64,000 nt of DNA from Hippopus hippopus (lineage: Eukaryota; Mollusca; Bivalvia; Cardiida; Cardiidae): the NCBI GenBank assembly GCA_946811185.2, contig OX328108.1, forward strand, positions 20,407,239 through 20,471,238. The letters run 5' to 3'. The notes under the pieces are model-generated. The model had not been told where the DNA came from. It made no database searches and worked only from the letters and a program-made list of their open reading frames with translations. The position numbers and the translations under genes are program-made. Below are positions 182 to 63,723 of this stretch, piece by piece (positions within the stretch are counted from its first letter, which is position 1; the number at the start of each line of letters is the position of its first letter).

Positions 182-402
182 CTAACCCCTGACCAAACTA
201 CAATCTTTTCCACATTGAGAGCATCTTTAGATAACTATATTAGAACTGGTACAAATTGACCAAAAAGATCTCACATGGTAGAAAACTTTGTGGGAAAAGG
301 AGAAAATACTGGTTACCAGCATTTTATCCTTTTATTGTAAATTTTTCAAAAGTTTTCTTCCTCAAGGTTGTTAAAATTCCTAATAGTGTGGTAAAGGGTT
401 AA
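182..402. mobile_element. F1 TTAA palindromic MITE
   Basis: The right end is intact (GTAAAGGGTTAA, TTAA at 399-402); the left TTAA has decayed to CTAA. The central palindrome is imperfect (~281-350). Right duplicate at 23787-24007. Confidence 0.75.
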
Positions 403-1009
403 AGTAGCAAGATAATGCCAAAATCTCAAGACATTTTTGCTGTGAATTATGAGGGCTTTTCAGAAATTATTTGAGACTACGCTTATAATATGAGAATGAT
501 AAGACTTACAAACGAAATATTTTATTTACAAATGACATATACTTTATTACTTTATACATGCCAAACATTGGGCCGCTAGGTTTTCTGTTTAGTGTCAGGG
601 CCTGTTGGAAATATACCATCTCGCTTGGTCTGGAGCACAACAATGCTTTGAATGTGACGTCCTATCAACATTACTGCGCGTTTACACTACTGCATGTCAT
701 TCCTTTTCAATAAACACCATTCAATCTAACTTAATATGTCGCTGCACCCATTTGTCGTACAGTTTTACATCATTTGCTATCTAATTACCTCACTACATTT
801 AGTTGCCTCAGTCTTCAGTTCACTAAATTATTGAATTTTATACCTCTCAACTGAGACTTGACACATGGAAAGACGTCGATGATCGGCGGTCCCCACCTCC
901 TTTTGTGATGAACGGAGATGATGCATCTTTCACAAACCGATTGTGGCACTGATAAATAAGAGCCCAAGACACACCTCTTCCGCTCTGTGTCATGTCTACC
1001 ATCTTTTTA
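403..1009. other. No gene or named element seen
   Basis: Less AT-rich than its surroundings but without long open frames or paired termini. Duplicated at 24008-24613. Confidence 0.5.
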
Positions 1010-1958
1010 AGCTCACCTGAGCACAACGTGCTCAAGTGGAGCTCTTAGAATCACATTGTGTCCATTGTACGTCGTGCGGCATCAACATTTCTTTAAACAT
1101 CTTCTCCTCCTAAACCGCTGGGCCAATTTGGACCAAATTTGGCTGGAATGTTTCTTGGGAGGTCCTCTTTAAGAATTGTTCACAAAATTTGATTCCATCA
1201 AAAACTCTGGTTGCCATGGCAACCAAATGGAATTTTCTAAGAAATTCTGTAAAAATCTTCTACGAAACCGCTGGTCAGATTTTGAAATAATATCACAGAA
1301 ATGTTCCTTGGGTGACCCTTTTCAAAAATTGTTTGCGAAATTTTGATCCATCGAAAAACATGGCTGTGGTGGTGGGGGGCTATTTGCACTATACGGACAT
1401 GAAGAAATTCTTAAAAATTCTTCTTCTCTGAAACCACTGGTCAGATTTTAAAATAATTTCACAGAAATGATCCTTATATTATGCCCCTTTTTTAGCTCAG
1501 CTGTTTCCGAAGAAAATATCAAGGTATTGTCATAGCCCTGTTGTGGTCGTCTGTGTTGTTGTCGTTGTTGTTGTGCAAAAACTTGACATTCTGCTATATC
1601 TCGGCTTCCACTCAACACATATACTTGAAACTTGGAATAATTGTTGACTAGTAAAAGAGCAACCCATACAACAAAGGCAGATAACTCTAAAATCATTTTT
1701 GTCCAAATTATGCCCCTTTTTCAACTTGGAATTTTAACTTACTATCCAGCATCCAACAGCCAATTGTTGGCACCCGCATGCAGTGCTCTTGTTCGACTTA
1801 ATATTTTTAGCCACTATCGGGCATGTGCTCTTGTTCATGAAATGGTCCTTGGGTGACCTGTCCCAAAATTTATTTGCAGAATTCTGATTCGTCAAAAACA
1901 TGGCTGTGGTGATGATTGTAGGGGTAGTGACAGATTTTGAAATGATTTTTACAGGTGA
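1010..1958. mobile_element. Tandem-repeat element, deleted at one end (left copy)
   Basis: Begins GCTCACCTGAGCACAACGTG (a terminal hairpin TGAGCACAACGTGCTCA). It contains ~155-bp repeats each marked by AAACCGCTGG or AAACCACTGG (about 1112, 1266, 1429). The far terminus found in the right copy is deleted here. Confidence 0.65.
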
Positions 1959-2806
1959 CCTTGTTTATTTCAGTAGAAGTTTTTCCAAGCTTGACCCAAA
2001 ACTTTACGTAAGCTTGCTGCTCCATCATCCTTTGTTATCCATTTTGTTGCCGTTTCTTTGATTACATGAACTTCCGGAAAATGGTAAAAAATTGTTTATC
2101 AATTATGTGAACAATATGAAACTTTACTGGAAATTCGTTAGAATAATGTAGTGTATATGACATCATTCTAACTTACTTTTCCCAGCTATTTTGATATCAT
2201 TTAAGCTTTTATTCAAGTGTGATTTATTTGAACTAACTCATTTTTACGGCGAGCTCTGATTACTCACACCTGTTGTTGATTTTAGGTTATATACTATTAT
2301 AACGTGTAACTCATACAGATTTCATTTAGGTCTTTCAATTTATTAAAGATTAATTCACGTTTATTGAAAATTTTATGCACATGTGTTAAGTTTTTCTCTG
2401 AAAGCATACATTGTCTCAATAGTTTCTGAACAACCCTCGTAAGTTTCAAAAACTTGTATGAATGGTATATGAAAAATAAAATGAATTTCTGCATATTGTG
2501 GTAATTCCACTGGTTCGACTATAGCCAGTCCCGCATGTGCTTAATAAATGCCTGAGAACTCTGTATCATAAAGCTAGCCTCAGGCGATATCCAAAAGCTA
2601 AACTGAAAAGACATGTTTTTTTGTGACTTTGTTTTGTGTGTTGAGCGGCATCTGCTTGTAGAAAAAGCGACTAGCATTTTTTTAACCCTCGTAACCAGTT
2701 ACAAATAGGCAAGTCTGATTTTAAACAATATTGTCAGAAGTGGAAATGGTCAATCACTTTGTAATCATTGTGTATGTTGGAGGAGGGGTGTTCTCTGGGT
2801 TGATGA

Positions 2807-3313
2807 TTAAATCTCTGTCATTTGACAAAATACTTGATAATATGTCTTAATTTCAAAGCATATGCAGAGCATAACTATAAATTTGGCTCAAATGACAGAA
2901 TTTTTGTAAGTCAAAGGACAGAAAACAACGTGGAAAAAGGAGAGAAGCAGCATTTTCTCCTTTTCCCACAATGTTTTCTAAAGCTGTGTCTGTTAGGGTT
3001 GTTAGAACTCAGGATTGTGTGGTAAAGCCTTAAGCAAAATAAATCTCCTGTGTACTCATGCAGCTATGTTATAGCCATTTAGCCATTTAGCCCCATGTTA
3101 CACAATCCCTACTTTTAACAACACTGACGGAGAAGACTTTTAATACATTGTGGGAAAAAGAGAAAATGCTGGCAACAGGTATTTGCCCCTTTTCCCACTA
3201 AACGTTCTACCCTGTGAAAGAACTTTGGTTTATTTGTACCACTTTCGCCATTGTTTTCTACAGATGCTTTCACTTAGGAAGAGTCTAGAATTTGTCTCTT
3301 GGTAAAGAATTAA
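2807..3313. mobile_element. Two neighbouring F1 MITEs
   Basis: Units 2807-3033 and 3087-3313, in opposite orientations. In the first, the left core arm is shortened (GGAGAGAAGCAGC). Right duplicates at 26530-26756 and about 26810-27034. Confidence 0.7.
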
Positions 3314-4394
3314 GTTTAAATAATTAAATTTTGCTAAGATGAAATATCAAGTATTAAGACGGAGCACATGATTCTCCGCATTCTATACCCCTGTATTTTT
3401 GTTTTTCTTTTTTGGTAAAATACTGCAATTCTATTACTTCTTCATAGGGGTGTAATTGAGTACTTAAAAATGTAATTAAGGAAAGTACCAGAATTGTATT
3501 ATGCCTGTGCTGATAAAACTTGAGTCCATGCTCAACTGTGCTTATAAAACTTGCATGCTGAACTGAGTTTGTGCTTAAACTTTAAAGTCTAATTATCGTT
3601 TGGACGGTATGAATATTTACAATGAAGACTTCAAATCAAAAGGCAGACACAAAGCAAAGCTGTAAAGTTCAGAAGTTATTCAATAAGGTTTATCAAATTA
3701 GATTTCTACAACTTATGAAATTTCATGTTCAGCTGAGTTATATAAGCATTAACTGAGTTTGAAATGGTTTTCTTTTGTAAATCTTTTTATTGAAAGTTTT
3801 GTATTTGAAGGACTCTAACTGCCTATCAAAGGGTTCTAAGGTTGTTAACAGTACCAAGGCATGCTACATATCCCCAACTGCCTTGATACAACAGTTTCCT
3901 TATACATGTATAATGTTTTCAATATCCTGATCAGTTGCTTTATTCACAGACTGTCCCGAAGATAGCTCTTCTAAATTCCAATAGTAGTTACCTGTGTCTG
4001 TTGATTTAGAGATGAGGCATCTTATTGGCTGAGACACATTGTATCTCAGCCAGTTTGATCCCTGTCTCTAAATTAAGCTTAAGAATAATGTGCAGAATAG
4101 CTATATGATATGAAATACAATGAAGAAAATGGAGTTACTGCTTGTACAAGCATTTTTTCCCATTTTCCAACAGTGTTGGTTTAAGCTATCCTTTCCTTGG
4201 CTAAAAAAAAAAATTATGATATCTAATTCATGTAAATGGCGATAGTAGACACTGCAAAGCATAAGCAAGTATTTATTTTTTATTACCGGTATACTTTGTT
4301 AAAGCTTGAATATCTTTAAATATCATTATGACTAAATAAAAGATGCTTTATTAAACTACTTTGTTATTTTTATTCTGCTATTGTTTTTACTATT
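3314..4394. other. AT-rich intergenic DNA
   Basis: Apart from the 4004-4071 hairpin and a small F1 core fragment near 4130-4180, nothing recognisable. Duplicated in the right copy. Confidence 0.5.
4004..4071. repeat. Hairpin TTTAGAGA...TCTCTAAA (left copy)
   Basis: Nested arms TTTAGAGA, GGCATC and GGCTGAGACA with their inverses. The right copy (27705-27771) pairs better than this one (GATGCC versus GATCCC, TGTCTCAGCC versus TATCTCAGCC). Confidence 0.6.
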
Positions 4395-4594
4395 TTAAAC
4401 CCTTTTAAAAAGGATCCTGTGCTTTTATCATTCTGAAGAAGGCTTTTGAAATCATAGTTGGCAATGAAAGAAATGCTGATAACCAGCATCTTCTTTTTCC
4501 ACCATGTTCTCTACCTTTTCAAAGCTTGTTTAATCGTTTGAGTCAGTTATTTGTCATCTGAAAGCCTAAAATATTTTATTTGGGGAAGGGTTAA
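4395..4594. mobile_element. F1 MITE, old copy
   Basis: TTAA at both ends. The core is diverged (AAATGCTGATAACCAGCATC) but still palindromic. Right duplicate at about 28096-28297. A smaller core fragment is at 4130-4180. Confidence 0.65.
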
Positions 4595-4689
4595 CTTGTA
4601 ATACAGAACAACAACCTTGTCAGATATGGTACTAATTCACAAATAATTCAAAATATTGTTCTAATATGATTTCATGACTCAATATTGAG

Positions 4690-5260
4690 GGTTGATGGTT
4701 TGAAAATTGCAGCTGGACCAATTTCTTTCAAACGACTAAAGATGCTCGTTTTACGTAACAGGATTCATTGCTTTCTCAATGCTGATCATTGTTATACCCC
4801 TGCAAAACGAATCAGCCTGTCTGTCCATGTGTCCGTCTGTGGACAAAATACTAGTAATTTTGTGTCGCGAACTCCTGCAGGTTTGCTGCTATTGTATTGA
4901 AAGTTTGGTGATATATTGGTCGTATACTGAAGTTGTGCAAGACGCAGTTTTCAATCATCTACTCCCTATGATTCCAGGGTAATCTCCCCTTGAACTAAGA
5001 ATATTCTTTGTTAAATTCCCTGTTTCTGTCAAAGCGCTGGCGGGCGTATTAAGTCACATTCAGTGACAGCTCTAGTTTCAACAATCTTTATAAAGGAAAG
5101 CAGCCAGGTGCTTGGGAAGAATATTATGCAAAGGACTGGTAAAAAAGGATTTCACGGAGAGCATCAATAGGTGCACTGGCTGCTGCGATATAAATGAAAT
5201 AATGTTGAAAGTGGTGTTAAACACCATACAAACAGCAAGTGGAGAACAAATACAGTATTT
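4690..5260 (+). repeat. SINE interrupted by another insertion (left copy)
   Basis: The segments 4690-4793 and ~5095-5240 match the 6312-6594 SINE (GATTCATTGCTTTCTCAATG; then GCTGGCTGCTGCGATATAAA and GTTGAAAGTGGTGTTAAACA). About 300 bp starting TATACCCCTGCAAAACGAAT is inserted between them. Right duplicate at about 28390-28960. Confidence 0.55.
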
Positions 5261-5341
5261 TAATGTGACTGGACAAGGGACAATGGTAACTCAAAATGCC
5301 CAACAATTGTTCTAATTCTTGACCACTAGTATAACTAGTCT

Positions 5342-5606
5342 AGGCCCGGTAGGGTAGTTCACTGGTCAGCGTATCTGACTTGTAATCTGCAGGTTGGATA
5401 CCTGGTTGAGGCAAACTTTCTTTCCAGTGATTTTTCAGCTCTCGCCTCTAATGCATGTGAGATAAGTAGTCAAGGGCTTTAAACAAAAGTTGTGTCAGCA
5501 CTAGTGTGATAAAGCCAGGAAACCCATGTTTAGGTGCATTGATAACTGTGATAAGACCTAAGTTGTAAAAACAGCGTTAAACTCCCAATACAGACAAAAT
5601 AACTAG
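5342..5606 (+). repeat. tRNA-derived SINE (left copy)
   Basis: A tRNA-like head (GGGTAGTTCACTGGTCAGCG; B-box GGTTGGATACC; anticodon-loop-like CTTGTAATC), a body of ~190 nt, and a tail GTTGTAAAAACAGCGTTAAA. Right duplicate at about 29045-29310. Confidence 0.6.
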
Positions 5607-5750
5607 TTTAATCACCTGACTGGCAGAAACGTTCAATCTCAACCAATGAAATGGCTTATCATGGAAATTAGAATTGAGTTGAATAGAACCCTAATTCTTG
5701 AAAATATTGTGTCCCCAAGATGCTCATTACAACTTTTGCCAATGAATATG

Positions 5751-5968
5751 AGTTACGCTTTGTGAAAAGGGGGTTTAGTGCATCTGCAAAATGTATTGAC
5801 ACATGTCAGCCTGTGCAGTTTGCTCAAGTCCAAAGACCATTCTACCTGATGATTCAGTCGGTTGTTAGACGAAATGAATCTCATGATCTGGATCCATAAT
5901 TATATGATGACTTGCTTGGCATAATGCATCATAGAGATGTACTAAATGCCCTTTTGTAAGAGCCCTGA
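5751..5968. mobile_element. F2 foldback MITE
   Basis: Starts TTTGTGAAAAGGGGGTTTAG and ends with the complementary CTAAATGCCCTTTTGTAAG. The internal palindrome is decayed. Right duplicate at about 29455-29672. Confidence 0.65.
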
Positions 5969-6049
5969 TCATACTATTTTGACTCAGTTGATATGAAAAA
6001 AGTGATTCAGAAGGAACATTCACAATTCTGATATTGGGAAAAGTCATTT

Positions 6050-6270
6050 TATACCTTTATGAAACAATTCCTTGATAAACAACTAAGAATTATACAGCTA
6101 TATAAAACATTTTTGGAGAAGGAGGAGTTGCTGTCAGCAAGCATTTTCTCCTTTTTCCACCATGGCTTTTTTACCTTTTCAATGACAAATTCAATCATTT
6201 GTACCAAAGTCTATTTGTTGTCTGCAAATGCTTTTAAATTAGACAAGTCTAAAATTTTGTAACCTGGTAA
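6050..6270. mobile_element. F1 MITE, degraded
   Basis: The inner TIR-flank motif (GTCTGCAAATGCTTTTAAATT) and right terminal GGTAAAGGG are recognisable; the palindrome retains AAGCATTTTCTCC. Right duplicate at about 29754-29975. Confidence 0.6.
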
Positions 6271-6311
6271 AGGGACATACGTTAAATTTGGTAAATTTAG
6301 AGAGAACATGT

Positions 6312-6594
6312 GCTAAGCCTGGTAGCGCAGCTGTTAGCGTACAGGGCTTGAAACCTGGTGGTCAATGGTTCAAGTTCCAATGCAGTCTATTTCTTTCCAA
6401 GGATAGATGGTATTCATTGCAACAAGATTCATTCCTTTCTCATGCCTGATCATTGTTTCAGTGTTTGTTACTGTGTCAAAAGAGCTATTGCCTTGGAAAC
6501 AAAATTTTGCAAAGTGCTGGTAATTGAAATTCCGGGATAGCATGGAAAGATGCACTGGCTGCCCGAGATATAACTGAAATGATGTTGAAAATAG
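6312..6594 (+). repeat. tRNA-derived SINE (left copy)
   Basis: Head GGTAGCGCAGCTGTTAGCG with B-box GGTTCAAGTTCC, and body and tail ending ATGATGTTGAAAATAGTGTT. The F1 element begins exactly at its tail. Right duplicate at about 30016-30298. Confidence 0.65.
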
Positions 6595-6825
6595 TGTTAC
6601 CTCTTTACCAAATGACAAAATTTAAGGTTAGTCCAAATTCAAAGTATTTGTAGACAACAAAATAAATGTGACTCAAATTTCGAAGGTTGTTCTGGGAAGG
6701 GTAGAAAACATTGTGGGAAAAGGAGAAAATGCTGCTTACTAGCATTTTCTCCTTTTCCCACAGTGTTTTCAAAAGGCTTCTTTTTCAGGGTCGTTAAAAG
6801 TCGAGATTGTGTCGTAAAGGGTTAA
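6595..6825. mobile_element. F1 MITE
   Basis: Ends in TCGTAAAGGGTTAA; core at about 6707-6774. The right duplicate (about 30299-30487) has lost 40 bp of the left internal region, apparently between short repeats of CAAATT. Confidence 0.75.
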
Positions 6826-7040
6826 CTTAAACATCAAACAAAGAAACAAAATTAAACGCATGAAAATATGCAAAAACGAAAAATAACTACCATCAAGTTC
6901 TGAACTTTTAATACAAGCAAAAAAAATACTTTAAAAAAAAGGAAACTATAAATAGGAAAAACAATGATATCAATTTTATAATCATTCATTCACTCCAGCA
7001 CTTTCTCCCCTTTCAGCCTTCTCAAGACAAATCCTTGCAT

Positions 7041-7263
7041 TTAACTTTTTACCAAACAACAACATTTTAGATCGGAAGCATTTGCAGACAACAAATCAAA
7101 CATTGCTCAAATGATGACATTTGACTGTAATAGTATACTAGAAAAAATTTTGGTAAAAGGAGAAAATGCTGGTTACCAGCATTTTCTCCTTTTCCCAAAA
7201 TGTTTTCAAAAGCATGTTTTCCCTGGAGTCGTTAAAACTTTGGATTTTGTGGTAAAGGCTTAA
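7041..7263. mobile_element. F1 MITE sharing a TTAA with the next copy
   Basis: TTAA at 7041-7044 and 7260-7263. The second TTAA is also the first TTAA of the following element. Right duplicate at 30703-30925. Confidence 0.85.
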
Positions 7264-7488
7264 CTCTTTACCAAACGACAAAATTTTAGACTTGTCCAAA
7301 TTGAAAGCATTTGCAGACGACAAAATAAACGTGACTCAAAAATTGAAACTTGACTTTAGAAGAGTAGAAAACATTGTGGAAAAAGGAGAAAATGCTGGTT
7401 ACCAGCATTTTCTCCTTTTCCCACAATGTTTTCACAAAGCTTCTTCCTCTGGGTCGTAAAAACCAGGGATTGTTTGATAATGGGTTAA
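7260..7488. mobile_element. F1 MITE, head-to-tail neighbour
   Basis: A near-consensus copy: TTAACTCTTTACCAAACGAC at the left and GGGTTAA at the right, with a long core palindrome around 7370-7434. Right duplicate at 30922-31150. Confidence 0.87.
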
Positions 7489-7545
7489 ACCACATTTGAT
7501 GCTATCAATATGGAAACGTTTAAAATTTTGTCATCCGTTACAGTG

Positions 7546-7840
7546 TTAACCCTTACCACACAATCCAGAGATTTAAGGACCCTGAGAAAGAAAGCTTCTG
7601 AAAATATTGTGTGAAAAATAGAAAACTCTGGTAACTAGCATGTTATCCTTTTACCACAATGCTTTCTACACAATCAAAGTCAAGTTGCATCATTTGAGCC
7701 AGCAGTAATTTATTGTCTGCAAATGTTTTGAATTTTGACAAGTCTACAATTTTGTCATACAGAAAAGAGTTAACTCTTTTAAGACAAAGTTTTAGGCTGA
7801 ACCAAGTTGAAAGCAGGTGACAAATCACCCCTTACAGTGC
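7546..7840. mobile_element. F1 MITE plus truncated second copy sharing TTAA
   Basis: 7546-7773 is a complete but diverged inverse-orientation copy. Its right TTAA (7770-7773) also starts a truncated left end (7770-7840). Right duplicate at 31208-31435 with the same truncated tail. Confidence 0.7.
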
Positions 7841-7841
7841 C

Positions 7842-8015
7842 TTATAAACCAAATAGACATTTTTCTGTCTAGAAATTAGACCCAAATAAGTGGAATTTCA
7901 AGGTTGTCTTTATCTATAGGAAGTTTAGATCCAAGATCAGACTGCATGTTTTGTGCAGAATAATCTTGATCTACACTGGCTGCAAAGGCAAAGATAGTGG
8001 TTAAAAGTACTCTCA
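7842..8015. mobile_element. F5 repeat family
   Basis: Marked by CTTGATCTACACTGGCTGCA and AAGGCAAAGATAGTGGTTAA, with an inner inverted GATCAGACTGCATG..TGCAG..ATCTTGATC. Relatives at 31502-31672 (duplicate), 42556-42760 (begins TTAACCTTTAAAGTGCC), 43432-43560 and 59212-59330. Confidence 0.5.
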
Positions 8016-8018
8016 GGG

Positions 8019-8221
8019 TTAATGAAGCTCAGCTGTTGATTTGTTAGAAAAGATTGTGGGAAAAGATACAAATGGAGGAAAAGGAGAAAATGCTGGTAAT
8101 CAGCATTTTATCCTTTTTCCACAATGTTTTCTACCCTTTACTTGAGAGTGTTAAATTTGTCATCTACAATAGCTTTCTAAATGTCCATGTTTAAAATTTT
8201 AAAATTCTGGTAAAGAATTAA
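8019..8221. mobile_element. F1 MITE with partly duplicated core arm
   Basis: The left arm begins twice (GTGGGAAAAGATACAAATGG, then GGAAAAGGAGAAAATGC), so the palindrome is asymmetric. Right duplicate at about 31682-31868, where 13 bp are missing at the left edge. Confidence 0.6.
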
Positions 8222-8387
8222 AAAACATGTAAAATGGATATAGTTAACATACATGTTGATCAACAAACACATGTGACACCTTTCTGTTTGCTGCAGAAGT
8301 TTCTCATCTTCTGCAATTTCTCCATTAGCTACAATGTTTCCAAAAGAGGTCTGCTACAAGATAAACAATGACAATTTCATAGAGTGT

Positions 8388-8668
8388 CTATTTTTCTTCT
8401 TTCCACGCAGACAATCTTGTTTTAAATTGGTTATCTGGAGTTGGTGTTGGAACTTTAGCTGACTTCGTCGTAGATCCAGATATAGGTCGAGTCGTGTAGG
8501 ATGTCGACGGGCGTGTCGTGGAAGAAGATGGCCGACTGTTTTCATCTGACCGAGAAATTCCTATACTTGGTGTTTTCTTTCCTCGTGCTGGGGCCGAGAC
8601 AGCTCTATTGGCAAGGTTATTTGTATCTTGTTTCCTAGATTTAGGTTGTGTGGTATTAGGTCTTACCC
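8388..8668 (-). pseudogene. ANKAR: ANKAR duplicate terminal exon
   Basis: A 281-nt exon with the same 92 codons and TAG stop as 32038-32318. The two substitutions (CCT/CCC, AAA/AAG) are silent. Confidence 0.8.
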
Positions 8669-8937
8669 CTGTAGTAAAAATAGAAAGCAGACTGGTTCAG
8701 CTTCAATTTGACAACTTTCAACCCCAGTTGTCTTTGCAAGTTTAACACCAGAAAGTTTTTTTCTTTATACTGCAACAAAATACTTTTGAAGCCATTGTGA
8801 TGGAAGGTAAAATACTCAAGAGAATTTCATTCAACCACAATGTTTTCATATAAATTACTGTACAACATATCAGGATTGACATACTGTACTTCAGAAGGAC
8901 GTTTTCAGTTGCATCTGCTTTAAATATGTTTCAGAAA

Positions 8938-9365
8938 GTAACAAACTACCCATAACAATCCTGACTTTTAATGACCCTAGGGAAGAAGGCTTTTGAAAAC
9001 ATCATGGGAAAAGGAGAAAATGCTGGTAACCAGCATTTTCTCCTTTTCCCACAATGTTTTCTACCCAATCAATGACAAATTTTGATATATGGGCCACCTT
9101 TAATTTCTCGTCTGTAATTGTTGTCAATTTGGACCAGTCTGAGACTTTGTCCTTTGGTAAAGAGTTAACTCTGTATCAGATGACAAAATTTTGGACCGCA
9201 CTAACTTGAAAGCATTTGCAGATGACAAAGTAAAATGTGGCCCCAAAGAAGATTTCTGTCTTTTAAATGACAGAAAATATAGCACTTTCTCCTTTTCCTA
9301 CAATGTTTTCAAAAGCCTTCTATCTCAGGGTTATTGAAACTCTGGATTGTTTGCTAAAGGGTTAA
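8938..9365. mobile_element. Two F1 MITEs sharing one TTAA
   Basis: 8938-9168 is in inverse orientation with an almost perfect core (about 9000-9063). 9165-9365 is in direct orientation and has lost most of the left core arm. They share TTAA 9165-9168. Right duplicates at about 32588-32817 and 32814-33015. Confidence 0.78.
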
Positions 9366-9461
9366 ATTTTAAACATGGATAAAGCCAACTGATGCTTTCT
9401 AATGAAAACATTAGAAACAATTCTAGTGACTGGAGAGAAACAGATCCTGTCTATGGTACTC

Positions 9462-9712
9462 TCGCAAAACTGGGCTAATGCATCTTTGCAAAGCACTATG
9501 CAAAGCATGTCAGAGTACAATATGGATGTATAATTAAAAAACAACTTAATAATGAGATGGAATGGTCCACTGACATGCAGAAAATTTAACAATAGCAAAA
9601 TGTTTCAACCCAGGTCAGCCTGCGTGGGCGGCACAAGCTGACATGGGTCAATAAGGCTTGCAGATGCATCAAAGCCCCTTTTCACAAAGCATGACTCTTG
9701 TGAAAATGGTGC
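9462..9712. mobile_element. F2 foldback MITE
   Basis: The core is CAGGTCAGCCTGCGTGGGCG followed by an imperfect inverse, with terminal AAAGCCCCTTTTCACAAAGC at the right. Right duplicate at about 33112-33360. Confidence 0.7.
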
Positions 9713-9732
9713 AGAAGTGCAGTCTTTAAGTC

Positions 9733-9951
9733 TTAACCTGACAAAATTCTAGACTTGTCCAAATTGACAGCACTTGCAGATGACAAAATAAATGGGACTC
9801 AAAAATTGAAATTTGTTTTGAGAAGGGTAGAAAACATTGTGGGAAAAGGAGAAAATGCTGGTTACCAGCATTTTCTCCTTTTCCCACAATGTTTTTAAAA
9901 GGCTTCTTTCTCAGGGTCGTGAAAACCCAGGATTGTTTGGGAATGGGTTAA
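9733..9951. mobile_element. F1 MITE with perfect 65-bp palindrome
   Basis: Bases 9831-9895 are an uninterrupted palindrome: a 32-bp arm, one central base, then the exact reverse complement (centre GCTGGTTACCAGC). TTAA at 9733-9736 and 9948-9951. In the right duplicate (about 33382-33600) one base in the distal arm has changed. Confidence 0.9.
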
Positions 9952-9954
9952 GTC

Positions 9955-10142
9955 TTAATCAGAAGATATAAAATTAGAATAGATCTTTTTTGAAGAAAAT
10001 GAAGGACACTGAACAATTTTGCGTGAAATGACGCAATTCGTCTGGGAATGGGTGGAAAACATTGTGGGAAAAAAGCTGGAAAATGCTGGAAACCCTCATT
10101 TTTTTTTTCCTCTTTATTTTCAAAATACAGGTAAAGGGTTGA
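9955..10142. mobile_element. F1 MITE, decayed
   Basis: Begins immediately after the previous unit and ends in GGTAAAGGGTTGAA. The core is reduced to AAAATGCTGGAAACCCTCAT. Right duplicate at about 33604-33793. Confidence 0.55.
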
Positions 10143-10240
10143 ATTTTAAAGCATTCCTTAAATTTACTGGGAAATAACAAGAATCAGAAAAAAATCCTGG
10201 AATTAAAAGAACATGAAAAAAAAATTAAAGCTACACCTAC

Positions 10241-10299
10241 CAAATGTATTTCCCATCCTGCTGCTAGGTATAATTGGATAACCCCCATTTATTTCCAAG
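10241..10299 (-). pseudogene. ANKAR: ANKAR duplicate NGG mini-exon
   Basis: A 59-nt exon identical to 33893-33951, including acceptor and donor. It lies downstream of the nonsense codon, so it would be untranslated in any transcript of this copy. Confidence 0.75.
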
Positions 10300-10400
10300 C
10301 TAAAAATAGAACAAAACAGTTTCCAAGCTAAAGATAGACAAAAATCCATGCCAGAAATAGCACAAAAAGTTTCCAAGCTAAAAATTTTCTACAATCTCCC
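10286..10400. repeat. Threefold direct repeat at the NGG mini-exon acceptor (left copy)
   Basis: TTTCCAAGCTAAA followed by A/G-rich sequence occurs at about 10293, 10320 and 10370. The first copy spans the exon start and its TAG acceptor. Right duplicate at about 33945-34050. Confidence 0.8.
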
Positions 10401-11266
10401 ATTTCTTTTTCACATAGGAGTAGAAAATTTTTAGAAATTTTTAACAAAATTTAAGTAGGATAAAGACGAGATGCTTTGCAAACTGTCGATTTAGATTAAA
10501 ATCCACGTAAATTACTGTCTGCATTTTTCGATTTTTGGTTTATATTATATGACTGAGACCTTGAGATTAAAATTTCAGACTTGTCAAAACTAAAAACATG
10601 TGTAGATGACACTTAATATGCTGCTAAAATGATGAAATTTGTCCTTTCAATTGTTGAAAACATTTTTTCACTTGAATGTTTGATAAATGGCTATACTGAG
10701 AGGAGATCTAGTTTTTTCAATGGTCCCCTGAAAATTTATATCCTTACGATGCTTGCATTCATGTATGGAAAGCATAAAGATAGTCAAAGAAAAGAGCCCA
10801 AGTATCAACCATTGTAGATAGCAGAAAGGGATTAATACTGGTAAGTAGTATAGTGCCATGTCCATCGACTTAAAAATTAATGCTAGACTCTAAATGCTAA
10901 AAATGGTTTCTGCAGTGTATTAGAAATAACCCTATGTCAGACAAATGAAGTAATTCTCTTACAACGATTAAGAAAGAAGAAAAAAGTAAATAATAAGACT
11001 GTAAGTAAACACTGTGACAAAACAGACCATAAATATTATAATGACCTAAGTGACACTGACCTCATCCTCTTGATGTCAAAATCATTAGGGATCATTTCAA
11101 CTTCATGATCAATATTAATTTTATGTCATCTTTGAAGAACCTAGGTCAGCCAACATCTATGTTTTGTCAAAATAGGTTTTTGTATTCTGACAGACCAGAC
11201 CAAATGACAGATATTTATGGGCAAAGCATGTACAACTCTTCTTTCATGGGGGCATATTTACTATTA

Positions 11267-11452
11267 TTTAAACTCTAATGACTTAGAAATATATGAAATT
11301 TATGAATGATGGAATTTGTTTTCAAAAGGGTGAAAAAAATTGTGGGAAAAGGAGAAAATGCTGGTAACCAGAATTTTCTCATTTTCCCACAATGTTTTCA
11401 AAAGCCTTCTCCCTTAGGGTCATTAAAACACCAGCTTGCTTTCTATAGGGCT
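11267..11452. mobile_element. F1 MITE next to the large ARM exon (left copy)
   Basis: The core arms are still near-complete around 11340-11403, while both outer flanks are badly diverged. It ends about 100 nt from the ARM exon. Right duplicate at about 34916-35100. Confidence 0.65.
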
Positions 11453-11550
11453 AATAATAATGATGACACTATTAGTCATAATTAGAAACAAATCATAGAA
11501 ATGAAGATATCCCAACACCTCTTCCTAGAAAAAAAGATCAAACAACTTAC

Positions 11551-11975
11551 CATTGGGAAGGCAGACCAACAATCTTTGCTCGCTTGAAGTCCTCCATGAA
11601 GTCGGGGCTGATTTTGGGACTTTCCCCAATATTATCCATTAGCTTCTTGTGAAGCCCCGGTTTATTTCGACAAGCACTGAACAACAATCTAGCTGCTGTC
11701 TTATTAAATGTTCAGTAACCAAGAGCAACAGCTACAGAATTTCTAACTTGTTCATTTGGAGAGTCTAGTCTCTTAATGAGGGCATCTATAGCCCCCGTGG
11801 TTACCATGGCATCTGGCAGGCCAGCCCGGGTGTGGGACAGACTTGAAAGTAAGCTGCTGGCAAGGACAACCACGTTGTCATCTTCTGACGGAATCTTCTT
11901 GACCAAGATTGTGACTCCCTGGGCGGTAAGGGAGACTTGGTCCCTGTCAACAATGACTCTCGCTAACACAACAAT
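11551..11975 (-). pseudogene. ANKAR: ANKAR duplicate large ARM exon with premature stop
   Basis: A 425-nt exon homologous to 35196-35620. In VALGY-L-TFN the Leu codon TTA is TGA here (minus strand, bases 11714-11712), so translation would end inside an ARM repeat and lose about 53 codons of this exon plus both downstream exons. The one other difference is silent (CTG/CTT). The donor is the consensus GTAAGT, better than in the intact copy. Confidence 0.93.
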
Positions 11976-12094
11976 CTGTTCAACAATAGCAAAGAGATAC
12001 AATGTATTATAGTGTTACGGGAGATCATTCCTTCCTTACTGCATAGCTTCTACCCGTATAAAATCAGAATCTAACAACTGCGTTGGATAGAATT

Positions 12095-12182
12095 CTCTTT
12101 AGCTCAGTGGTTAAGGTGTTGGTGTTTTAAACCTCAAAATATGGGGATCTTTACTGCACGGGTTCGAATCCCAGCTGGGGCA
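12095..12182 (+). repeat. tRNA-like sequence (SINE head or tRNA pseudogene, left copy)
   Basis: A-box-like TTAGCTCAGTGGTTAAGG and B-box GGGTTCGAATCCC at tRNA spacing. The 5' acceptor arm (TTCTCTTT) does not pair with the 3' GCTGGGG, so a functional tRNA is unlikely. Confidence 0.6.
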
Positions 12183-13618: not shown

Positions 13619-13639
13619 CTGAAGTGATGAAAATAATGA

Positions 13640-49400: not shown

Positions 49401-52400
49401 TGCTACATATGAAATGGATACTTTCAGTTCATAGGTTAGACCTAGTTATTACCTACTCGTGGCTGTGTTGTCAAGAAAATCTTTAAATCAGGGGCAGTGT
49501 TGATCAATATCAAACTGCATAGAAAATGTAAACTGATCTTGATCCTAACTAGTTATATAGCCTAAACATGGCTATATGCTAATAAATCCAATATATACAC
49601 ACATAAAAAAAAAACTTAACAAGTTTTGGGTTGCAATAAAATAATGTTCCATCCTCCTACCAAATTTTCAAATGAAACAGGACAACAATCTTCTTACAAT
49701 AACATCATGATTATAATACATGCATTATATATATGATGTCGTGCAGTGACATATTTTTTTCCTATATTACAATCTAATTTCTACCAAACACAAACACTGG
49801 AATAGGTCTATGTAAAATATATGATGATTTCCCCCACACAAGGACAACTTTCACAAAATCATTTGTATAACATTTAGGGATTCGTCAATTTGTATAACAT
49901 ACAGAGGGTAGGTTTGAATGCACAACAAACAATTTTTCCCTGTTATGCATGGGTGGCACTCTGGGAAAAAGGGTTGAATGCATTTTAACCCTTATCCTGC
50001 CGAGTTTGAAATCCCAATGATTACTGAAATATATTCTGCTGAATTTAACAGCACCGAATGGAGTTTATTTGTTAGAAACTACAGAGAGAGCAGCGGAGAG
50101 TGTAGAGCAAGATCAGACTGCACGTATGTGCAGGCTGATCTTGCTTTACACTCTCCACAAAATACATCAATGGTTGCAAACAGCAGGATAAGGGTTAAGT
50201 TTGGATTGTACAAAGTGAGTTGTAGCATATTATGGATCCATTTTGCCTAAAAACCAACCGATTAAAGTAATAAAATAGTCCTTTGACCTGAAGAAACACT
50301 GCCAATGGTAAAAAGTTATGACTGTACAAACTGACCTGGGTCAATATTTTTTGCACATACATGGAACCTCCTTTTACAGATGACTCAATTACCATATGTA
50401 TTCAATACTACCAACAGATTTAAATTGTTTCATTTCAAGCAATCAAAACAATCTTTAGCTTGGTACAGTTTCGAACTAAAATATGCAACACAAGTTTCAC
50501 CAATTTAGACAACAAATATTTTGCATTTGCAAGGTTCCATTTTTGGTTGAAAACAACAGTAAGTCTTACAGACAATATGATAAATTATACAATATGGTCA
50601 TTATACCTGCATTTGACTGTATAAAAACATAAAATTGGACTTTCTTTTTAGTTAGAAGAGTATATCAAACATGATAAATATTGCTCTATATGGTTCATTT
50701 GGTGCAGTTTCACATGAGACTTAAGTTAGCTTAAACATTTATTTTACACCATTGCAAAACAAGTTGTTACAACTTCTATTAACTCTTTACAACACAATCC
50801 CAAGTTTGAATGACCCTGAAGGAGAAGGCCTTTGAAAACATTTTGGGAAAAAAGAGAAAATGCTGGTAACCCCCTTTTCCCACAATGTTTTCTACCCTAT
50901 TAAATGCTGAAATCACCATTTAAGCAACATTTGATTTGTCATCTGCAAATGCTTTCAATTTGGTACAGTCCATAATTTTGTGTTAATTAGTCTGGATGAC
51001 TGCTTCCTAGAAACCTTAATCAGTACTCATGCTGTGATGTAGGTAGACCCAAAGGTTGGCCCTGGTCATAACATGATTCAAACCCAGAACTTTCACTGTG
51101 AGAGGCAGATGCTTTACCCTTGCACAACTGTCTCCCACTTAAGTTATTGAAAAAGGGTCACCCAATGATAATGTATTTCCATCTTACTGGTATTTCCCGA
51201 AATAAAAATTTCTATAACTCTTCAGCTTAACTTCCTTCAAAGGATACTGTAATTTCATGTTGTTTCCCAATTGAATTTTTTCGAACTCTACCGCTAATTT
51301 TCTATCAAAAAATCAGAAAGTCAGTTTATATGAGTACCCACAACCACAGATTTAAAAAAAAACATTAACTGACTACATATCCAATCCCACTATGCCCTTT
51401 TTATAATAACAAGGAAAGAAATCTTTTCTTTGAAATATTCTTAGCCCTTTATATAACAACCTTACACTTTTCTGTGCTGAAGAAGACACCAATGTAAACT
51501 TTGCAGGGAAAGAACAAAATGCTGGTAACCAGCATTTTCTTCCTTTTCCCATGATGTTTTTATACCAATTCAAAGACAAATTATATAATTTGAACCAAAT
51601 TTTAATTGTTACCTAAAATTATTTTCAATTTTCAAAAAGTCTAAAATTTTTTGGTAAGGTAAAAAGCTAAACGAAAGCAGCACATACCTGCATCTAGTAT
51701 AGAGCGCCAGTGATCAGGTTTTGATGTAGAGAGAACTTCCAAACATTTCACTGAACTGTCCTTCTTCTTCATGTCAGTGCTGTTTAACATTCCTGCAGCA
51801 AAAAGCCAATTGGTTTTGTTTTGTTTGGTGTTGTACGCCATTTTCAGTATCATTAGATTTTAATTCAAACCTATACTGACCAAGCAATCCTGTGTTTTAA
51901 AGATCCTGAGGAAAAATAATCTTCTGAAAACTTTCTGGGAAAAGGAGAAAATGCTGGTAATAATCATTTTCTCCTTTCACATTAACATATTTTTTTTACC
52001 CTTTCTGACACAATTTTCAAAATTTGAGATATATCTAATTTGTCATCAGCAGATACTTTCATTTAGGACAAACCTTAAACTTTGTTGTTTGGTAAAGAGT
52101 TAACCCTTTACCACACAATCCAGAATTTTACCAACCCTGAGAAAAAACACTTTTGAAAACATTGAGGGAAAAGAAGGAAATGCTTGTAACCAGCATTTTC
52201 TTCTTTACCAACAATGTTTCCTAAAATTTAATAGAAAAATCCCATCATTTGAGCCACATATATGGATAGGTAAACTGTTTGCCGCAATAAAACTCAAACA
52301 AGAGGGCCATGATGGCCCTGTATCGCTCCACTGGCTATTAAGTAAAAACCCTACAAGCCAAACATTACAATATTCAGCAAATTGATTTTAAACACGAGGA

Positions 52401-58400: not shown

Positions 58401-61400
58401 ACAAACTAATGTTTTGAAAACATTTTAAAAAAATTCAATCAAAAATTTTGTAACAAACAATTTATACCTTCACCAGATTTGGGTATTTCAGATTTTCTCT
58501 GCATGGTTAGAAAAGCAATGTTAACATTTGGGTGAAAATGAGAAACTCTTGTGAAACACACTTTTTACAAATTCAAATGTGAGTAAATTCCCATAAATTT
58601 GGGTAAATAAAGAGTCAGTTAATAACAGTTAAGATTGTGCACAAAATCACAAAAAAAACCAAAGTGAAGTTAATCAATACAGTCATGTTAATAATCCAAG
58701 ATTCTCCTGTAATAAAACGCAAAGACTGTAACTCCCACACAACAAAATTTTAGACTCATCAATATCGAAAGCATTTATTTTGTAGACAACAAACTAAACA
58801 TGATATGGCTTGCAACATGCGAAAAGGGGCATTCGGACATTTGTGTAAAGTGTCGTCTCGGATCAGCCTGCGCAGTCCGCGCAGGCTAATCCGAGACGAC
58901 ACTTTCCGTTCTTATGTAATTTTCTGTTTTGTGCAAGTCTACTGTAGGACAAAATTGAATGTAGTTGTAAAGTGCCGTCTCAGATTAGCCCGCGCGGACT
59001 GTGCAGGCTTATCCGAGACGACACTTTACGCAAATGTCCGAATGCCCCTTTTTGCGTGTTGCGGGCCATATAATGGTGAGATTCGTTTTTGATATAGAAG
59101 AAAACATTTTGGGAAAAAGGAGAACATGTTGGTTACCAGCATTTTCTCCTTTGTCCACAATTTCTTCAGAAGCCCCCCTGCTCACACTTGGGATTGTGTG
59201 GAAAAGGTTTAAACACCTTTCACAACTGTAGTTGCCTCTGTGGCCAGTTTTGATAAAGATGAGAATGCACAAAACATGCTTTCTAATCTTCGATCTACTC
59301 TGTTCTCTTTTCTGGGACATTCTGTAGAAGAGGGAACCTTAACATTGCAACTCTAATAGTTGTATTTCTATACTTAAATGTTTGTTGTACTTGTATGATA
59401 CTTTACAGATTAACTAAACCGTCCAACTAAATCACTGAACAATGCAACAGCCGACTTTATCAAGAACTACAGCATCATCAGTTGAATTTATAGGTCCATA
59501 TTAGATAAAACAAAATCTCGCTTCTTTTGAATATGCCTAATACTGACAAAAACTGTGTTATAAATAGCCATATCTTTAGGTAGTTAACCTTGTTCCACCT
59601 TTAAGAAAGATGTATCTGAAGTCATCTGAAGATGATAACTGCAGGAAATGTTGTGACAACTGACAAATGCAGAAATTTGCTCAAACTGGGCAATTTCTCC
59701 ATTTCAAGCAGTTTTCTTTGTCATTACAATAAAATATGTGTCAATACTTTGTTGTTTTTAATTAAAAAAACTGAAGTTAGATGGGCTGAAAATTAACCCT
59801 TTACAAAACAATCAAAATTTTAACAATCCTGAAGAAAAAAGATCTGAAAATATTGTGGGAAAAGAAGAAAATATTTAAAACTAGCATTTTCTCCTTTTCA
59901 CACAATGTTCTTTTATACCCTAAGAGACAAATCTTGTTCTCTGAGGTACATTTAATTTTTCATCTGCAACTGTTTGAATTTGGACGAGTCTATCATTTTG
60001 TCGTCTGGTAAAGAGTTTAGCACAGGGAGAAAGTGACAAAAGCCTGTAAAATCAAAGAGTCTTATAAAGTTCAGTTGACAAATGTCTAGATTCATATTTT
60101 ATTTGCTGAAAACATCCATTTCTATTTGACCAAATACGAAAAGTAAACCACTTCAAATGTACAAACAATCTTGATGCATGTAAAATCTATAACTTTTGTA
60201 CATTTGTCTTTGAGTCATGCTCTGTGAAAAGGGCGTTTAATTCCTTACCAAACGACAAAATGTTGGACTTGTCCAAATTGAAAGTATTTGCTAATGACAC
60301 ATTAAATATTGTTAATATTAGGATTTCTCTCCTTAAAAGGGTAGAAAACATTGTGGGAAAAGGAGAAAATTCTGGTTACCAGCATTTTCTCCTTTTCCTG
60401 CATTGTTTTCAAAAGCCCTCTTCCTTAGGGTCGTTTAAAGTCGGGATTGTGTGGTACATGTATAGGGTTAATGCACCTGCAAAAAGTATTGACCCATGTC
60501 AGCCTGCACAGTCTACCCATGCTAACATGGGTTGAAGCTTTTTTGCTGTTTGTAAATTTCCTGCATGTACCAGCATTTTCTCCTTTTCCTACAATTTTTT
60601 CTACCCTATCAAGGACATATGTTGTCGTTTAAGCTACATTTCTTATCTGCAAATGCTTTCAACTTTGATGAGTTTAAAACTTTGTTATTTTGTAAAGAGT
60701 TATTGGAGAAAACAAGTAACCCCCTTCAATAAAAATACAATTTGTTTGCAAAAAGCCTTTTAATAGTACCATATCTTTTCTGTTAAAATGAATAACTCTT
60801 TACAAGACAACAAGATTCTTGATTTATCTTATACAGAAGCATTTGCAAATGCTAATTCTAATGAGGCTCTCAAATTGTGGAATTTTTCTACCCATCTGAG
60901 AAAAGAAAAGTCCCTTTTCCTGTAACATACCTAAATTATCTGGTAATATTTATGAGAATTATGACAATATGCAAAAGAAAGCTGGAAATGTCTGAAATTC
61001 CCTTTAAACAGAAAATAAATTCCCTCCCCCTTTATTTTGTAAATGATCATGATATTGAGATTTACACATTTTTTAACCAACGTTTTATCAATTAAAAAAA
61101 AAAAAGCACACTCAATGCAAGAGTTACAAGGTCTTTAGCAAACAACAAAATTTTAGACTTGTCCTATCTAGAGGCATTTGCACATGACATGAGGCTAGGG
61201 TTTGTTTTTGAAAGGGTGAAAATAGTGTGAGAAAGGAAGAAAATGCTGGTAAGCAGCATTTTCTTCTTTCCTCTCAATTTTTTTCAAAAAATCCTCTTCC
61301 TCAGGATCAAAATATACTTGTTTGCATGGTAATGAGTTACACAATAACTAAACAACAGTTATCACTCTCTTTTTTCACAACCTTAAGTTGTTCGCTCATT

Positions 61401-61608: not shown

Positions 61609-61709
61609 TGTGAATTTTTATCATATCATCTTTTTAGAAATATGTGAGAAGTTAAATAGTTAACAAAAGTCCAATCTTTAACTACAGTAAAAATTTATCT
61701 TGGATTACA

Positions 61710-61920
61710 CAACCCTTTAACAGATGATCGAATTTTATATCAATTTATGTCAAAAGCATTTGCAGACAACCATTTGAATTTGGCTAGAATGATGGCACTT
61801 GTCTCAGAAAAGGTAGAAACCATCTTGGGAAAAGTACAAAATGCTGCATGACAGCATTTTCTCCTTTTTCTGAAATGTTTTCAAAAGCCCTTCATTTCAG
61901 AGTTACAAAAACACAGAATA
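61710..61920. mobile_element. F1 MITE, diverged
   Basis: ACAACCCTTTAACAGATGAT start; core AATGCTGCATGACAGCATTT. It directly abuts an F2 element at 61926. Confidence 0.55.
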
Positions 61921-61925
61921 CATGT

Positions 61926-62181
61926 GAGCTGTGCTCTGTGAAAAGGGGGGTTTCATGCATCTGCGAAAAGTATCGACTCAGGTCAGCTTGCGCAGGCTGA
62001 CCTGGGTCGAAACTTTTCGCTACTGGTCAGTTTTCTGTTTGTCAAAGGACCAGTCTACCTCATGATTAAGTCAGTTATTTGAAAAAGTGGCTCTTATGGA
62101 TCCATAATTATGTGATGACTTGGGCTAGTATCATGTACAACGGAAATTCATTAAGCCCCTTTTTGCCAGAGCATGGTTCAT
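61926..62181. mobile_element. F2 foldback MITE, full length
   Basis: CTGTGCTCTGTGAAAAGGGG at the left and CCCCTTTTTGCCAGAGCATG at the right. Core GCGCAGGCTGACCTGGGTCG. Confidence 0.78.
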
Positions 62182-63723
62182 GTAGTTTGTTACAGGGTCC
62201 AATGATATTACTCATTTTTCCTCAGAATTTGGACGTTAGTAATATGAGTCTCAGAAAGCCATAATATGCACTCATAAATAGATCAAAACAAAATAGGCTC
62301 CCATGGTAGAAATATATCCTAAAAGACAACTCAAGAGAAATAACAAAAATCTCAGAAATTTTATCTGGGTCCCTATTTATCATTTTTAAGAACGTTTTTA
62401 GTCTTTTTCTCCAAGATTTTCTAAATGTGAATGTAACACAACTTCTGATTGGCTAAAACAAGTGGTTCAGCCAATCAGAAGTTGTGTTACTTTCTAAATC
62501 CAGAATCAGACCAAGAATGTTCTCAAGAATGGTTGGTGATTACAGACCCCAGATATCAATATTTTCTATTAAATAAAGTGGATTTTATCAGTCCAAAATG
62601 GTTTTATTGTGACACAAGGGATCAAAGAGATCTATGCATTTTCTTCAACATAAGTCAAGGTAGGGATTTTCCCTGAGAGTCCTCATATCTCTCTCAACAT
62701 GAGATATTGCTCATAAGCAAACAGTTTCTCTTTTTGCCACATTTGTTTCAAAAGTACAATGTAGTCTGTTGTATGACAAGAAAAGAAGTCTGAAGGAGAT
62801 CATGTGAAAAGACATTATTTGTAAACAAGTTAAGAAATGAGTCAGGAAAGCCATGGTGAATGTCCATCTGTTTACTATCTAAATGTACAGTAAAATCTTC
62901 ATCAATTGACTCAAAGAAGAATCAAAACATAAGAGAGGCCTTCTGAAAACATTGTGGAAAATGGAGAAAATGCTGGTAGCCAGCAGTTTCTCTGATTTTG
63001 TTGTTGGAAAATGTTTTCAGCTTTGACTGGTCTAAAATTCTGTGATCTTGTACAGAGCACAATCTTTGATACCGTGGTTCTTGAGAATAGCAGTATCTCT
63101 GATGGAATTTGACTGTACCTTTTTTGTTACTAAATTTAGTGTGACTCTAAAGCTGAAAGAAAGATAAAAGACATTGAGAAAATATATGAGTACATATGAA
63201 AAGGGGGACAATTAGGATTTCTTGGGAAAAAGCCATTGTGTTTGAGAGAGTCTTTGACAAGGGAAGTAACTGTTTTAATCACCTTTTTCATGACAGAGTT
63301 ATTTAACTTCCTCCTTAAACTTTCTCAGTTGTTATATTTTCAGAGTAGTTTTCATTAATGTGATGATTTCCAAAAACAGTATGGAAAAGATGTAAGGACT
63401 TGTGTCAAGTTAATTCTCTGCTCACAATGTTTTCAAAAGCTGACGAGATAATCTACAATTTATTGTGATAAATTAGAATAAAATTAACTACACAATAGTG
63501 GCCAAAAGTAAAGAATTTTAAAAAAGAGCCAAAATGCAAAAACATTTAATTCATACTCATTTAAAGTATGGATATTATTATGACCCTGATAATGATTTAT
63601 AGTGCAATTAATCAAAGTTGGGGGGGGGCCAAAAAATGTACAGTAAAACTAATACAAAAGTTGGCAACAGGACTGTCCAATACAGGGTCATTCAATGAAA
63701 TAAATTCATCTGTTACATGTATG
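62182..63723. other. Unassigned DNA near right edge
   Basis: Contains the 62433-62490 hairpin and a decayed F1 (about 62925-63060). I searched the minus strand for further ankyrin-type exons and saw none. Confidence 0.45.
62433..62490. repeat. Perfect 22-bp hairpin
   Basis: GTAACACAACTTCTGATTGG plus CT, then a 14-nt loop, then the exact inverse. TTTCTAAAT occurs on both sides, possibly a remnant of target duplication. Confidence 0.85.

What the first reader, a model, noticed from the sequence alone, without database searches (positions are those of the whole stretch)
182..63060. About 60 copies of a TTAA-bounded palindromic MITE (F1) in 64 kb
Units of ~190-230 bp begin TTAAC(C/T)CTTTACCA and end TGGTAAAG(G/A)GTTAA, in both orientations, with a central palindrome centred on GCTGGT-N-ACCAGC. 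The copies range from near-perfect to barely recognisable, so activity has been prolonged. TTAA with CCCTTT-type ends suggests mobilisation by a piggyBac-family transposase (inference). The density, roughly one per kb, is extreme, and I do not recognise the family as a named one.
Basis: partly seen in the sequence, partly recalled or inferred. Interest (0 to 1): 0.85.

Follow-up and report, generated by a model that had tools for sequence, protein, structure and literature searches.

The report
Million-copy TTAA MITE with central palindrome
A roughly 229-base non-coding mobile DNA element that sits at TTAA sites makes up about a seventh of this genome by extrapolation, and a palindrome in its middle has been kept as faithfully as its ends, which suggests that the mobilising enzyme needs it.

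Summary
A profile finds 92 non-overlapping F1 matches in the window (43 full length, 24.5% of bases; 68 outside the second copy of a 23.6-kb duplication). The end motif occurs 208,698 times exactly in the 1.07-Gb genome (reversed control 31). Nineteen 10-kb samples extrapolate to 0.91 ± 0.13 million matches, about 14% of the genome. F1 is about 229 bp, TTAA-bounded, with CYCTTTACCA ends, a 67-bp central palindrome and no coding signal. Strict TTAA targeting and C[C/T]CTTT ends fit piggyBac-type mobilisation; Kolobok termini do not. The genome holds piggyBac transposase genes with open frames, but none of the 14 loci whose ends I could read has F1's ends, so the partner is unidentified. New: the palindrome carries few subfamily variants (11 of 67 columns against 69 of 134 in spacers), yet substitution rates are equal in a natural duplication (0.92% and 0.91%; small numbers). 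A four-base core variant is nearly always changed on both arms (544 sites against 6). The palindrome is probably selected during transposition, plausibly as a transposase docking site; that role is inferred.

The parts
40810..41038 (+). Reference full-length F1 copy, TTAA to TTAA, 229 bp
   Evidence: terminal arms 40810-40826 / 41022-41038, 94% complementary; profile hit 40813-41036, 232.5 bits
40865..40931 (.). Central palindrome of that copy: 33-bp arms, 1-bp centre
   Evidence: 91% complementary
7260..7488 (-). Full-length F1 copy (right end partly decayed)
   Evidence: 235.2 bits
18849..19069 (+). Full-length F1 copy
   Evidence: single-strand DNA fold z = -9.2, stem formed by the palindrome
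7041..7488 (-). Two F1 copies sharing one TTAA (7041-7263 and 7260-7488)
52087..52113 (+). Head-to-tail junction of two F1 copies around a shared TTAA at 52100-52103
   Evidence: exact right end motif at 52090 and exact left end motif at 52100
60237..60471 (-). F1 copy inserted in another dispersed repeat; gives the empty-site test
   Evidence: joined flanks match 33 uninterrupted places (30 distinct after removing duplicated ones); 17 (16 distinct) have exactly TTAA at the junction, none shows it doubled
182..402 (-). First F1 copy named by the finding
62933..63057 (+). Last F1 fragments (62933-62992, 62995-63057)
1..16430 (+). First copy of a tandem duplication carrying 24 F1 matches
23606..40071 (+). 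Second copy of the duplication, with 24 F1 matches in the same order

Best explanation
F1 is a very large family of non-autonomous, non-coding DNA transposons (MITEs) that inserted at TTAA by cut-and-paste, most likely using a transposase of the piggyBac type supplied in trans. The cis signals that lineages had to keep to go on transposing are the ends (CYCTTTACCA) and the 67-bp central palindrome. The palindrome most likely acts at the DNA level, as an internal two-fold-symmetric docking site for a transposase dimer (as the subterminal palindromes of piggyBac and piggyBat do), serving both ends of a very short element. Shown: TTAA boundaries, copy-number scale, low subfamily variation of the palindrome, equal substitution in one duplication, compensated arm variants. 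Inferred: cut-and-paste, piggyBac-type enzyme, docking role, and loss or decay of the partner.
For: All four TTAA bases are about equally conserved (84, 79, 74, 84% over 80 non-redundant ends; 86, 84, 80, 88% over 116 with some ends counted twice) with a sharp outer border. Empty sites: 33 uninterrupted places, 30 distinct; TTAA in 17 (16 distinct), doubled in none. Of 95 distinct elements recruited by ends alone (<=3 mismatches), 94 are F1. In 75 distinct full copies, variants shared by >=10% of copies: 0.13 per site in spacers, 0.023 in the palindrome, 0.020 in the ends; rarer variants 0.106, 0.080, 0.10. 11 of 67 palindrome columns against 69 of 134 spacer columns carry such a variant, Fisher p 1.5e-6. 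Substitutions between duplication copies: palindrome 12/1307, spacer 22/2415, ends 3/353. Compensated four-base variant 544 sites, one-armed 6; one compensated pair 17 sites against 392 one-armed. No codon-position signal. PF13843: 119 matches, several in open frames of about 485-602 aa.
Against: No autonomous element with F1's ends was found: 0 of 14 loci with a readable end, of 31 loci fetched and 119 matches. F1 termini lack the palindrome at bp 21-36 seen in 3 of 11 piggyBac ends tested here (uncorrected p <0.05). About half of F1 ends read CTC rather than CCC (one piggyBac element here, L045, reads CTCTTT at both ends). The lower divergence of the palindrome does not fade between the closest copies: ratio to spacers 0.32 both in 60 pairs at spacer distance 0.10-0.20 and in the only 2 pairs below 0.10, so some protection at the mutation level is not excluded; the duplication test has wide intervals (0.5-1.6% and 0.6-1.4%). 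Rarer variants are also about a quarter lower in the palindrome. Symmetry could be kept by hairpin-templated repair. A TA duplication with absolute T(TA)A preference would leave the same empty sites. Odds were lowered from 0.72 to 0.66 for the close-pair result.
Confidence: 0.66

Rival explanations
1. Palindrome sequence and symmetry are kept by DNA mechanics (template switching or gene conversion between arms), not by selection for transposition.
For: Excess of complementary double changes within copies: 34 against 13.3 +- 3.5 in shuffles; partner columns 2.3% both-changed against 1.2-1.7% for slid pairs (75 distinct copies; searches agree). 17 sites with a compensated single pair, where independence of the 392 one-armed changes over about 110,000 cores would give fewer than one. 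The palindrome stays less diverged even between the closest copies.
Against: Arm-to-arm correction explains symmetry but not directly the five-fold lower number of shared variants. Substitution between duplication copies is the same in palindrome and spacer (small numbers). In the 100 listed of 110,574 cores, four arm positions being free, I saw changes on one arm only.
Confidence: 0.24
2. F1 belongs to the Kolobok superfamily, which also targets TTAA.
For: TTAA boundaries. Kolobok is reported as almost exclusively found in bivalves among molluscs (PMC10294476, passage), but the host phylum was not tested here.
Against: Kolobok and T2-MITE termini are RR / AGGRR (PMC6004289, passages); F1 begins C[C/T]C. 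Kolobok transposase genes were not searched for in this genome.
Confidence: 0.06
3. F1 is a satellite-like or segmentally amplified repeat rather than a transposon.
For: Tandem units sharing TTAA: 11 of 104 left ends (<=2 mismatches, both duplication copies counted); 3,163 exact junctions, above the naive expectation of 1,300-2,600.
Against: Mostly dispersed, both orientations, precise TTAA ends, empty sites. The junction number is only 1.2-2.4 times what random hits on existing ends would give.
Confidence: 0.02

Closest known systems
CMITE families of Acropora corals (PMC2872659; passages and section 10 read)
   Same: TTAA duplications, CCCTTT-type ends in most families, internal region conserved across families, tandem units
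   Different: About 100 bp, about 1,600 copies estimated in A. millepora; no word beginning 'palindrom' occurs in the main text; the internal sequence is not printed in the text, so homology is untested
piggyBac / piggyBat transposons (PMC11707139, passages)
   Same: TTAA target; internal palindromes bound by paired C-terminal cysteine-rich domains
   Different: Autonomous; palindromes are subterminal and 14-19 bp, not one 67-bp central palindrome
T2-MITE / Kolobok of Xenopus (PMC6004289, passages)
   Same: TTAA-targeted MITEs, long-lived
   Different: AGGRR termini
Pokey and mPok of Daphnia (search listings and abstract starts only)
   Same: piggyBac superfamily with MITE derivatives
   Different: Inserts at a specific rDNA site; putatively autonomous groups known; copy numbers and sequence not compared

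Membership tests
piggyBac/TTAA MITE | Insertion at TTAA with TTAA on both sides | tested here: met
   (16 of 30 distinct empty relatives carry TTAA, none doubled); cannot by itself separate a 4-bp from a TA duplication with absolute TTAA preference
piggyBac/TTAA MITE | Terminal motif CC[C/T]T / CCCTT | tested here: inconclusive
   F1 ends read CCCTTT or CTCTTT; second base 40-46% C, 42-53% T. Motif from PMC2872659 and PMC10813416. The CCC half fits; the CTC half deviates but is seen in the piggyBac element L045
piggyBac/TTAA MITE | Short, no transposase gene | tested here: met
   about 229 bp; an open frame in the consensus but no codon-position pattern
piggyBac/TTAA MITE | Shares TIRs with an autonomous piggyBac element | tested here: inconclusive
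   0 of 14 loci with a readable TTAACYC end (seven end types; L048 and L050 assigned by motif alone); 31 loci fetched of 119 PF13843 matches; the other ends were not seen
piggyBac/TTAA MITE | Mobilised in trans by piggyBac transposase | not testable with these tools
   needs a transposition assay
Kolobok / T2-MITE | TTAA target | tested here: met
Kolobok / T2-MITE | RR (AGGRR) termini | tested here: not met
   F1 begins CYC; motif from PMC6004289
CMITE | Homologous 75-bp internal region | not tested
   sequence not available in the text read

The most novel reading that the evidence does not exclude
The central palindrome is one internal transposase assembly site serving both ends, selected for two-fold symmetry rather than exact sequence; having the palindrome once, in the middle of a 229-bp element, is what allowed one MITE family to reach about a million copies, more than I recall for any other single MITE family (recalled, not searched exhaustively).
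Probability: 0.25. Interest if true: 0.75.

Novelty: new variant of a known kind. Interest (0 to 1): 0.5.

Why it matters
A single family of about 229 bp occupying some 14% of a gigabase genome (extrapolated) is on the scale of Alu (recalled comparison). It offers a natural mutagenesis experiment: hundreds of thousands of copies separate what the element needs for transposition (ends and, it seems, the central palindrome) from what it does not (spacers). That makes the role of internal palindromes in TTAA-targeted transposition directly testable, and could give compact transposon vectors.

Tried and rejected
Coding function: the reverse strand has an open frame through the palindrome, and a 51-aa translation finds 2,401 proteins among 2,463 candidates, 120 listed. 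The 120 listed are 58-86% identical to their best held locus, median 77; 28 stop-free copies of this genome find each other at a median of 61. Species unknown.

Autonomous partner: an element end was read at 14 of 31 fetched piggyBac loci and none matched. A decayed F1-like palindrome upstream of the 492-aa family (L041, L047, L057) was rejected as evidence of kinship, because F1 density alone makes such neighbours likely. Three 99.7% identical places (L029, L032, L033) carry an F1 relative (ends CCCTTTCCCA, GCTCGT palindrome) beside the transposase frame, but identity runs through the whole fetched stretch, so they are copies of a larger unit and show no element ends.

Palindromes as such are not special to F1 here: of 109 strong palindromes in the sequence then held, 79 match F1 and 30 belong to other repeats. 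Rfam: nothing at gathering score. Central core pattern: no exact match in GTDB species contigs or IMG/VR contigs. Literature: typed peptide strings gave 0 papers; typed end and core DNA strings gave 3 papers, unrelated by title and abstract start; MITE/piggyBac searches gave listings without a matching family. Passages of PMC11373642 and PMC8905726 list little piggyBac in bivalve genomes and were not otherwise used. The host species was not identified; a bivalve-like look is recall only.

Script faults: one search parsed one F1 domain only and is replaced. The 107 elements and 80 rows contained the same element twice in some cases; one search repeats the counts on 95 and 75 distinct elements, and those are the numbers used. 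In one search one end (L035 right) was cut 3 bases off.
Full report
OBSERVATION. The exact left motif TTAACYCTTTACCA occurs 8 times and its complement 11 times in the window, 37 and 44 times with up to two mismatches. Three seed copies align end to end and share a 67-bp central palindrome (90-96% self-complementary); two of the three have 14-17-bp matching terminal inverted repeats, and in the third the right end has decayed. A profile built from them and iterated over all sequence then held finds 92 non-overlapping matches in the window at E<=1e-3, 43 full length, 15,669 bp or 24.5% (37 plus and 55 minus strand). The window holds a tandem duplication of about 23.6 kb (1-16430 against 23606-40071); leaving out its second copy, 68 matches remain.

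GENOME SCALE. The window lies in a 1.068-Gb assembly of 34 contigs; contigs 1-18 are 36-82 Mb. The 14-base end motif occurs exactly 208,698 times on both strands together, against 31 for the reversed pattern. In 19 fixed-position 10-kb stretches (20 asked, one contig too short) the profile finds 162 matches, 59 full length, 13.9% of bases; the reversed stretches give none. With the standard error over stretches this extrapolates to 0.91 +- 0.13 million matches, 0.33 +- 0.06 million full-length copies and 149 +- 23 Mb. The palindrome core pattern (five free positions) occurs at 110,574 sites.

ENDS AND TARGET. Using only the inner motif CTTTACCA[AC], the four bases TTAA stand at 86, 84, 80 and 88% over 116 ends (some ends counted twice through the duplication and overlapping loci) and at 84, 79, 74 and 84% over 80 non-redundant ends, with a sharp outer border. 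For 80 recruited copies I joined the flanks with one TTAA and looked for uninterrupted relatives. The cleanest case is 60237-60471, which sits in another dispersed repeat: 33 uninterrupted places (30 distinct), 17 (16 distinct) with exactly TTAA at the junction, none with it doubled. Many other spanning hits are F1 against F1 and were not used; that output was cut in the middle. A TA duplication with absolute preference for T(TA)A would look the same, so this shows strict TTAA targeting rather than the length of the duplication. Copies sharing a TTAA are common: 11 of 104 left ends, 3,163 exact junctions genome-wide. Random hits on existing ends would give about 1,300-2,600 (TTAA at 7.8 per kb), so tandem units are 1.2-2.4 times the naive expectation.

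WHAT IS CONSERVED. Recruiting by ends alone (<=3 mismatches, 60-420 bp; second duplication copy and two near-identical loci left out) gave 107 entries, 106 of them F1 by profile; on recount these are 95 distinct elements, 94 of them F1. In 75 distinct full-length copies, variants shared by at least 10% of copies amount to 0.135 and 0.125 per site in the left and right spacers, 0.023 in the palindrome and 0.020 in the ends; rarer variants are 0.106, 0.106, 0.080 and about 0.10. By column, 11 of 67 palindrome positions and 69 of 134 spacer positions carry such a common variant (Fisher p 1.5e-6). With the doubled entries left in, the figures were 14 of 67 and 72 of 134. The ends are biased by the recruitment; the palindrome is not. 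The duplication gives a control for mutation rate: across 25 F1 domains, substitutions between its two copies are 12/1307 in palindromes, 22/2415 in spacers, 3/353 in ends and 185/12,263 in flanks (intervals 0.5-1.6% and 0.6-1.4% for the first two). On this evidence the palindrome is not a strong mutational cold spot, and lineages that kept amplifying kept it. Against this, palindrome divergence stays at about a third of spacer divergence even between the closest copies I hold (60 pairs at spacer distance 0.10-0.20; only 2 pairs below 0.10), where a purely lineage-level effect should fade. Each duplication copy carries 24 matches in the same order, so there is no sign of F1 movement there since the copies (or, if this is an assembly artefact, the haplotypes) parted.

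SYMMETRY. Complementary changes on both arms within a copy are more frequent than chance: 34 against 13.3 +- 3.5 in shuffles of 75 distinct copies; partner columns are both changed in 2.3% of cells against 1.2-1.7% for slid pairs (searches agree on overlapping sets). Genome-wide, a core differing at four positions in compensated fashion occurs at 544 sites, while the same two changes on one arm only occur at 6. One compensated pair alone occurs at 17 sites against 392 one-armed. A planned non-partner control pattern did not complete, so these counts lack that control. The F1 relative beside the transposase frame in L029/L032/L033 has nearly this variant core and ends CCCTTTCCCA. As single-stranded DNA a full copy folds with z = -9.2, mainly through this stem. 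The consensus has an open frame through the palindrome but no codon-position signal.

TRANSPOSASE. PF13843 (piggyBac DDE) has 119 matches in the genome, many in open frames of about 485-602 aa. At 14 a TTAACYC end, and at three of these both ends, could be read: CCCTTTA[TG]ATACGAGTA (L037, L038, L039, L042, L052), CCCTAGTCATGC (L035, L044, L049, L053), CCCATATAWGCC (L036), CTCTTTGAGCACC/CTCTTTAGGTACT (L045), CCCATTCTATACGG (L028), and, by motif only, CCCTCGTAGTGC (L048) and CCCTCTTCCTGC (L050). None is CYCTTTACCA. Of 11 such ends tested, 3 have a palindrome at bp 21-36 (L028 p 0.01, L048 p 0.004, L036 p 0.03, uncorrected) and 8 do not reach 0.05; F1's two ends have none. In piggyBac and piggyBat such palindromes are bound by paired cysteine-rich domains (PMC11707139, passages). 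My reading is that F1 carries its symmetric site once, in the middle. That is inference.

CLASSIFICATION. piggyBac-type by target and, for the CCC half of its ends, by terminal motif (PMC2872659, PMC10813416, passages); Kolobok is disfavoured by its RR termini (PMC6004289, passages). The nearest described case is the coral CMITE group, also TTAA-flanked with a conserved internal region and tandem units, but about 100 bp and about 1,600 copies. I saw no description of this family in the listings, which show titles and abstract starts of one open-access library; Repbase and Dfam could not be searched, so a deposited entry is possible.

LIMITS. The genome estimate rests on 190 kb. Full-length copies are 61-90% identical to the consensus, median 82% (105 copies), so boundaries of old fragments are soft. 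Host species and family age in years are unknown.

Noticed in passing
window 1-16430 and 23606-40071: Tandem duplication of about 23.6 kb, about 98% identical; could be a true duplication or uncollapsed haplotypes. Its flanks differ more (185/12,263) than the F1 copies inside it (37/4,075; p 0.004), unexplained.
   Followed up: partly
window 49985-50198: A different TTAA-bounded element with ends CCCTTATCCTGC; the only end-recruited element that is not F1.
   Followed up: no
window 43954-44929: Array of about 6.8 copies of a 145-bp unit (81% alike) containing GACCTAGTGACCTAG.
   Followed up: no
window 16871-16928, 61963-62020, 63883-63949 and sampled loci: A second dispersed palindromic repeat (AAAAAGTATCGACCCAGGTCAGCCTGCGCAG...), apparently the host of the F1 insertion at 60237-60471.
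   Followed up: partly
window 62429-62494; L009, L011, L018, L020: A third palindromic repeat, CTTCTGATTGGCTAAACCA/TGGTTTAGCCAATCAGAAG.
   Followed up: no
L029, L032, L033: Three places with a 491-aa piggyBac frame, 99.7% identical over the fetched 3.2-3.5 kb including F1 copies, with a possible splice acceptor just upstream of the frame; a recent spread of a larger unit.
   Followed up: partly
G000 C18:768638-773808 and C14:46865951-46872704: A split PF13843 gene type (pieces 52-182 and 197-349) lies 3-5 kb from a 491- or 505-aa piggyBac frame in opposite orientation at both places.
   Followed up: no
L018:7497-7521: A further F1-like palindrome with a different but still symmetric core (GCTCGAGACGAGC) in other surroundings.
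   Followed up: no
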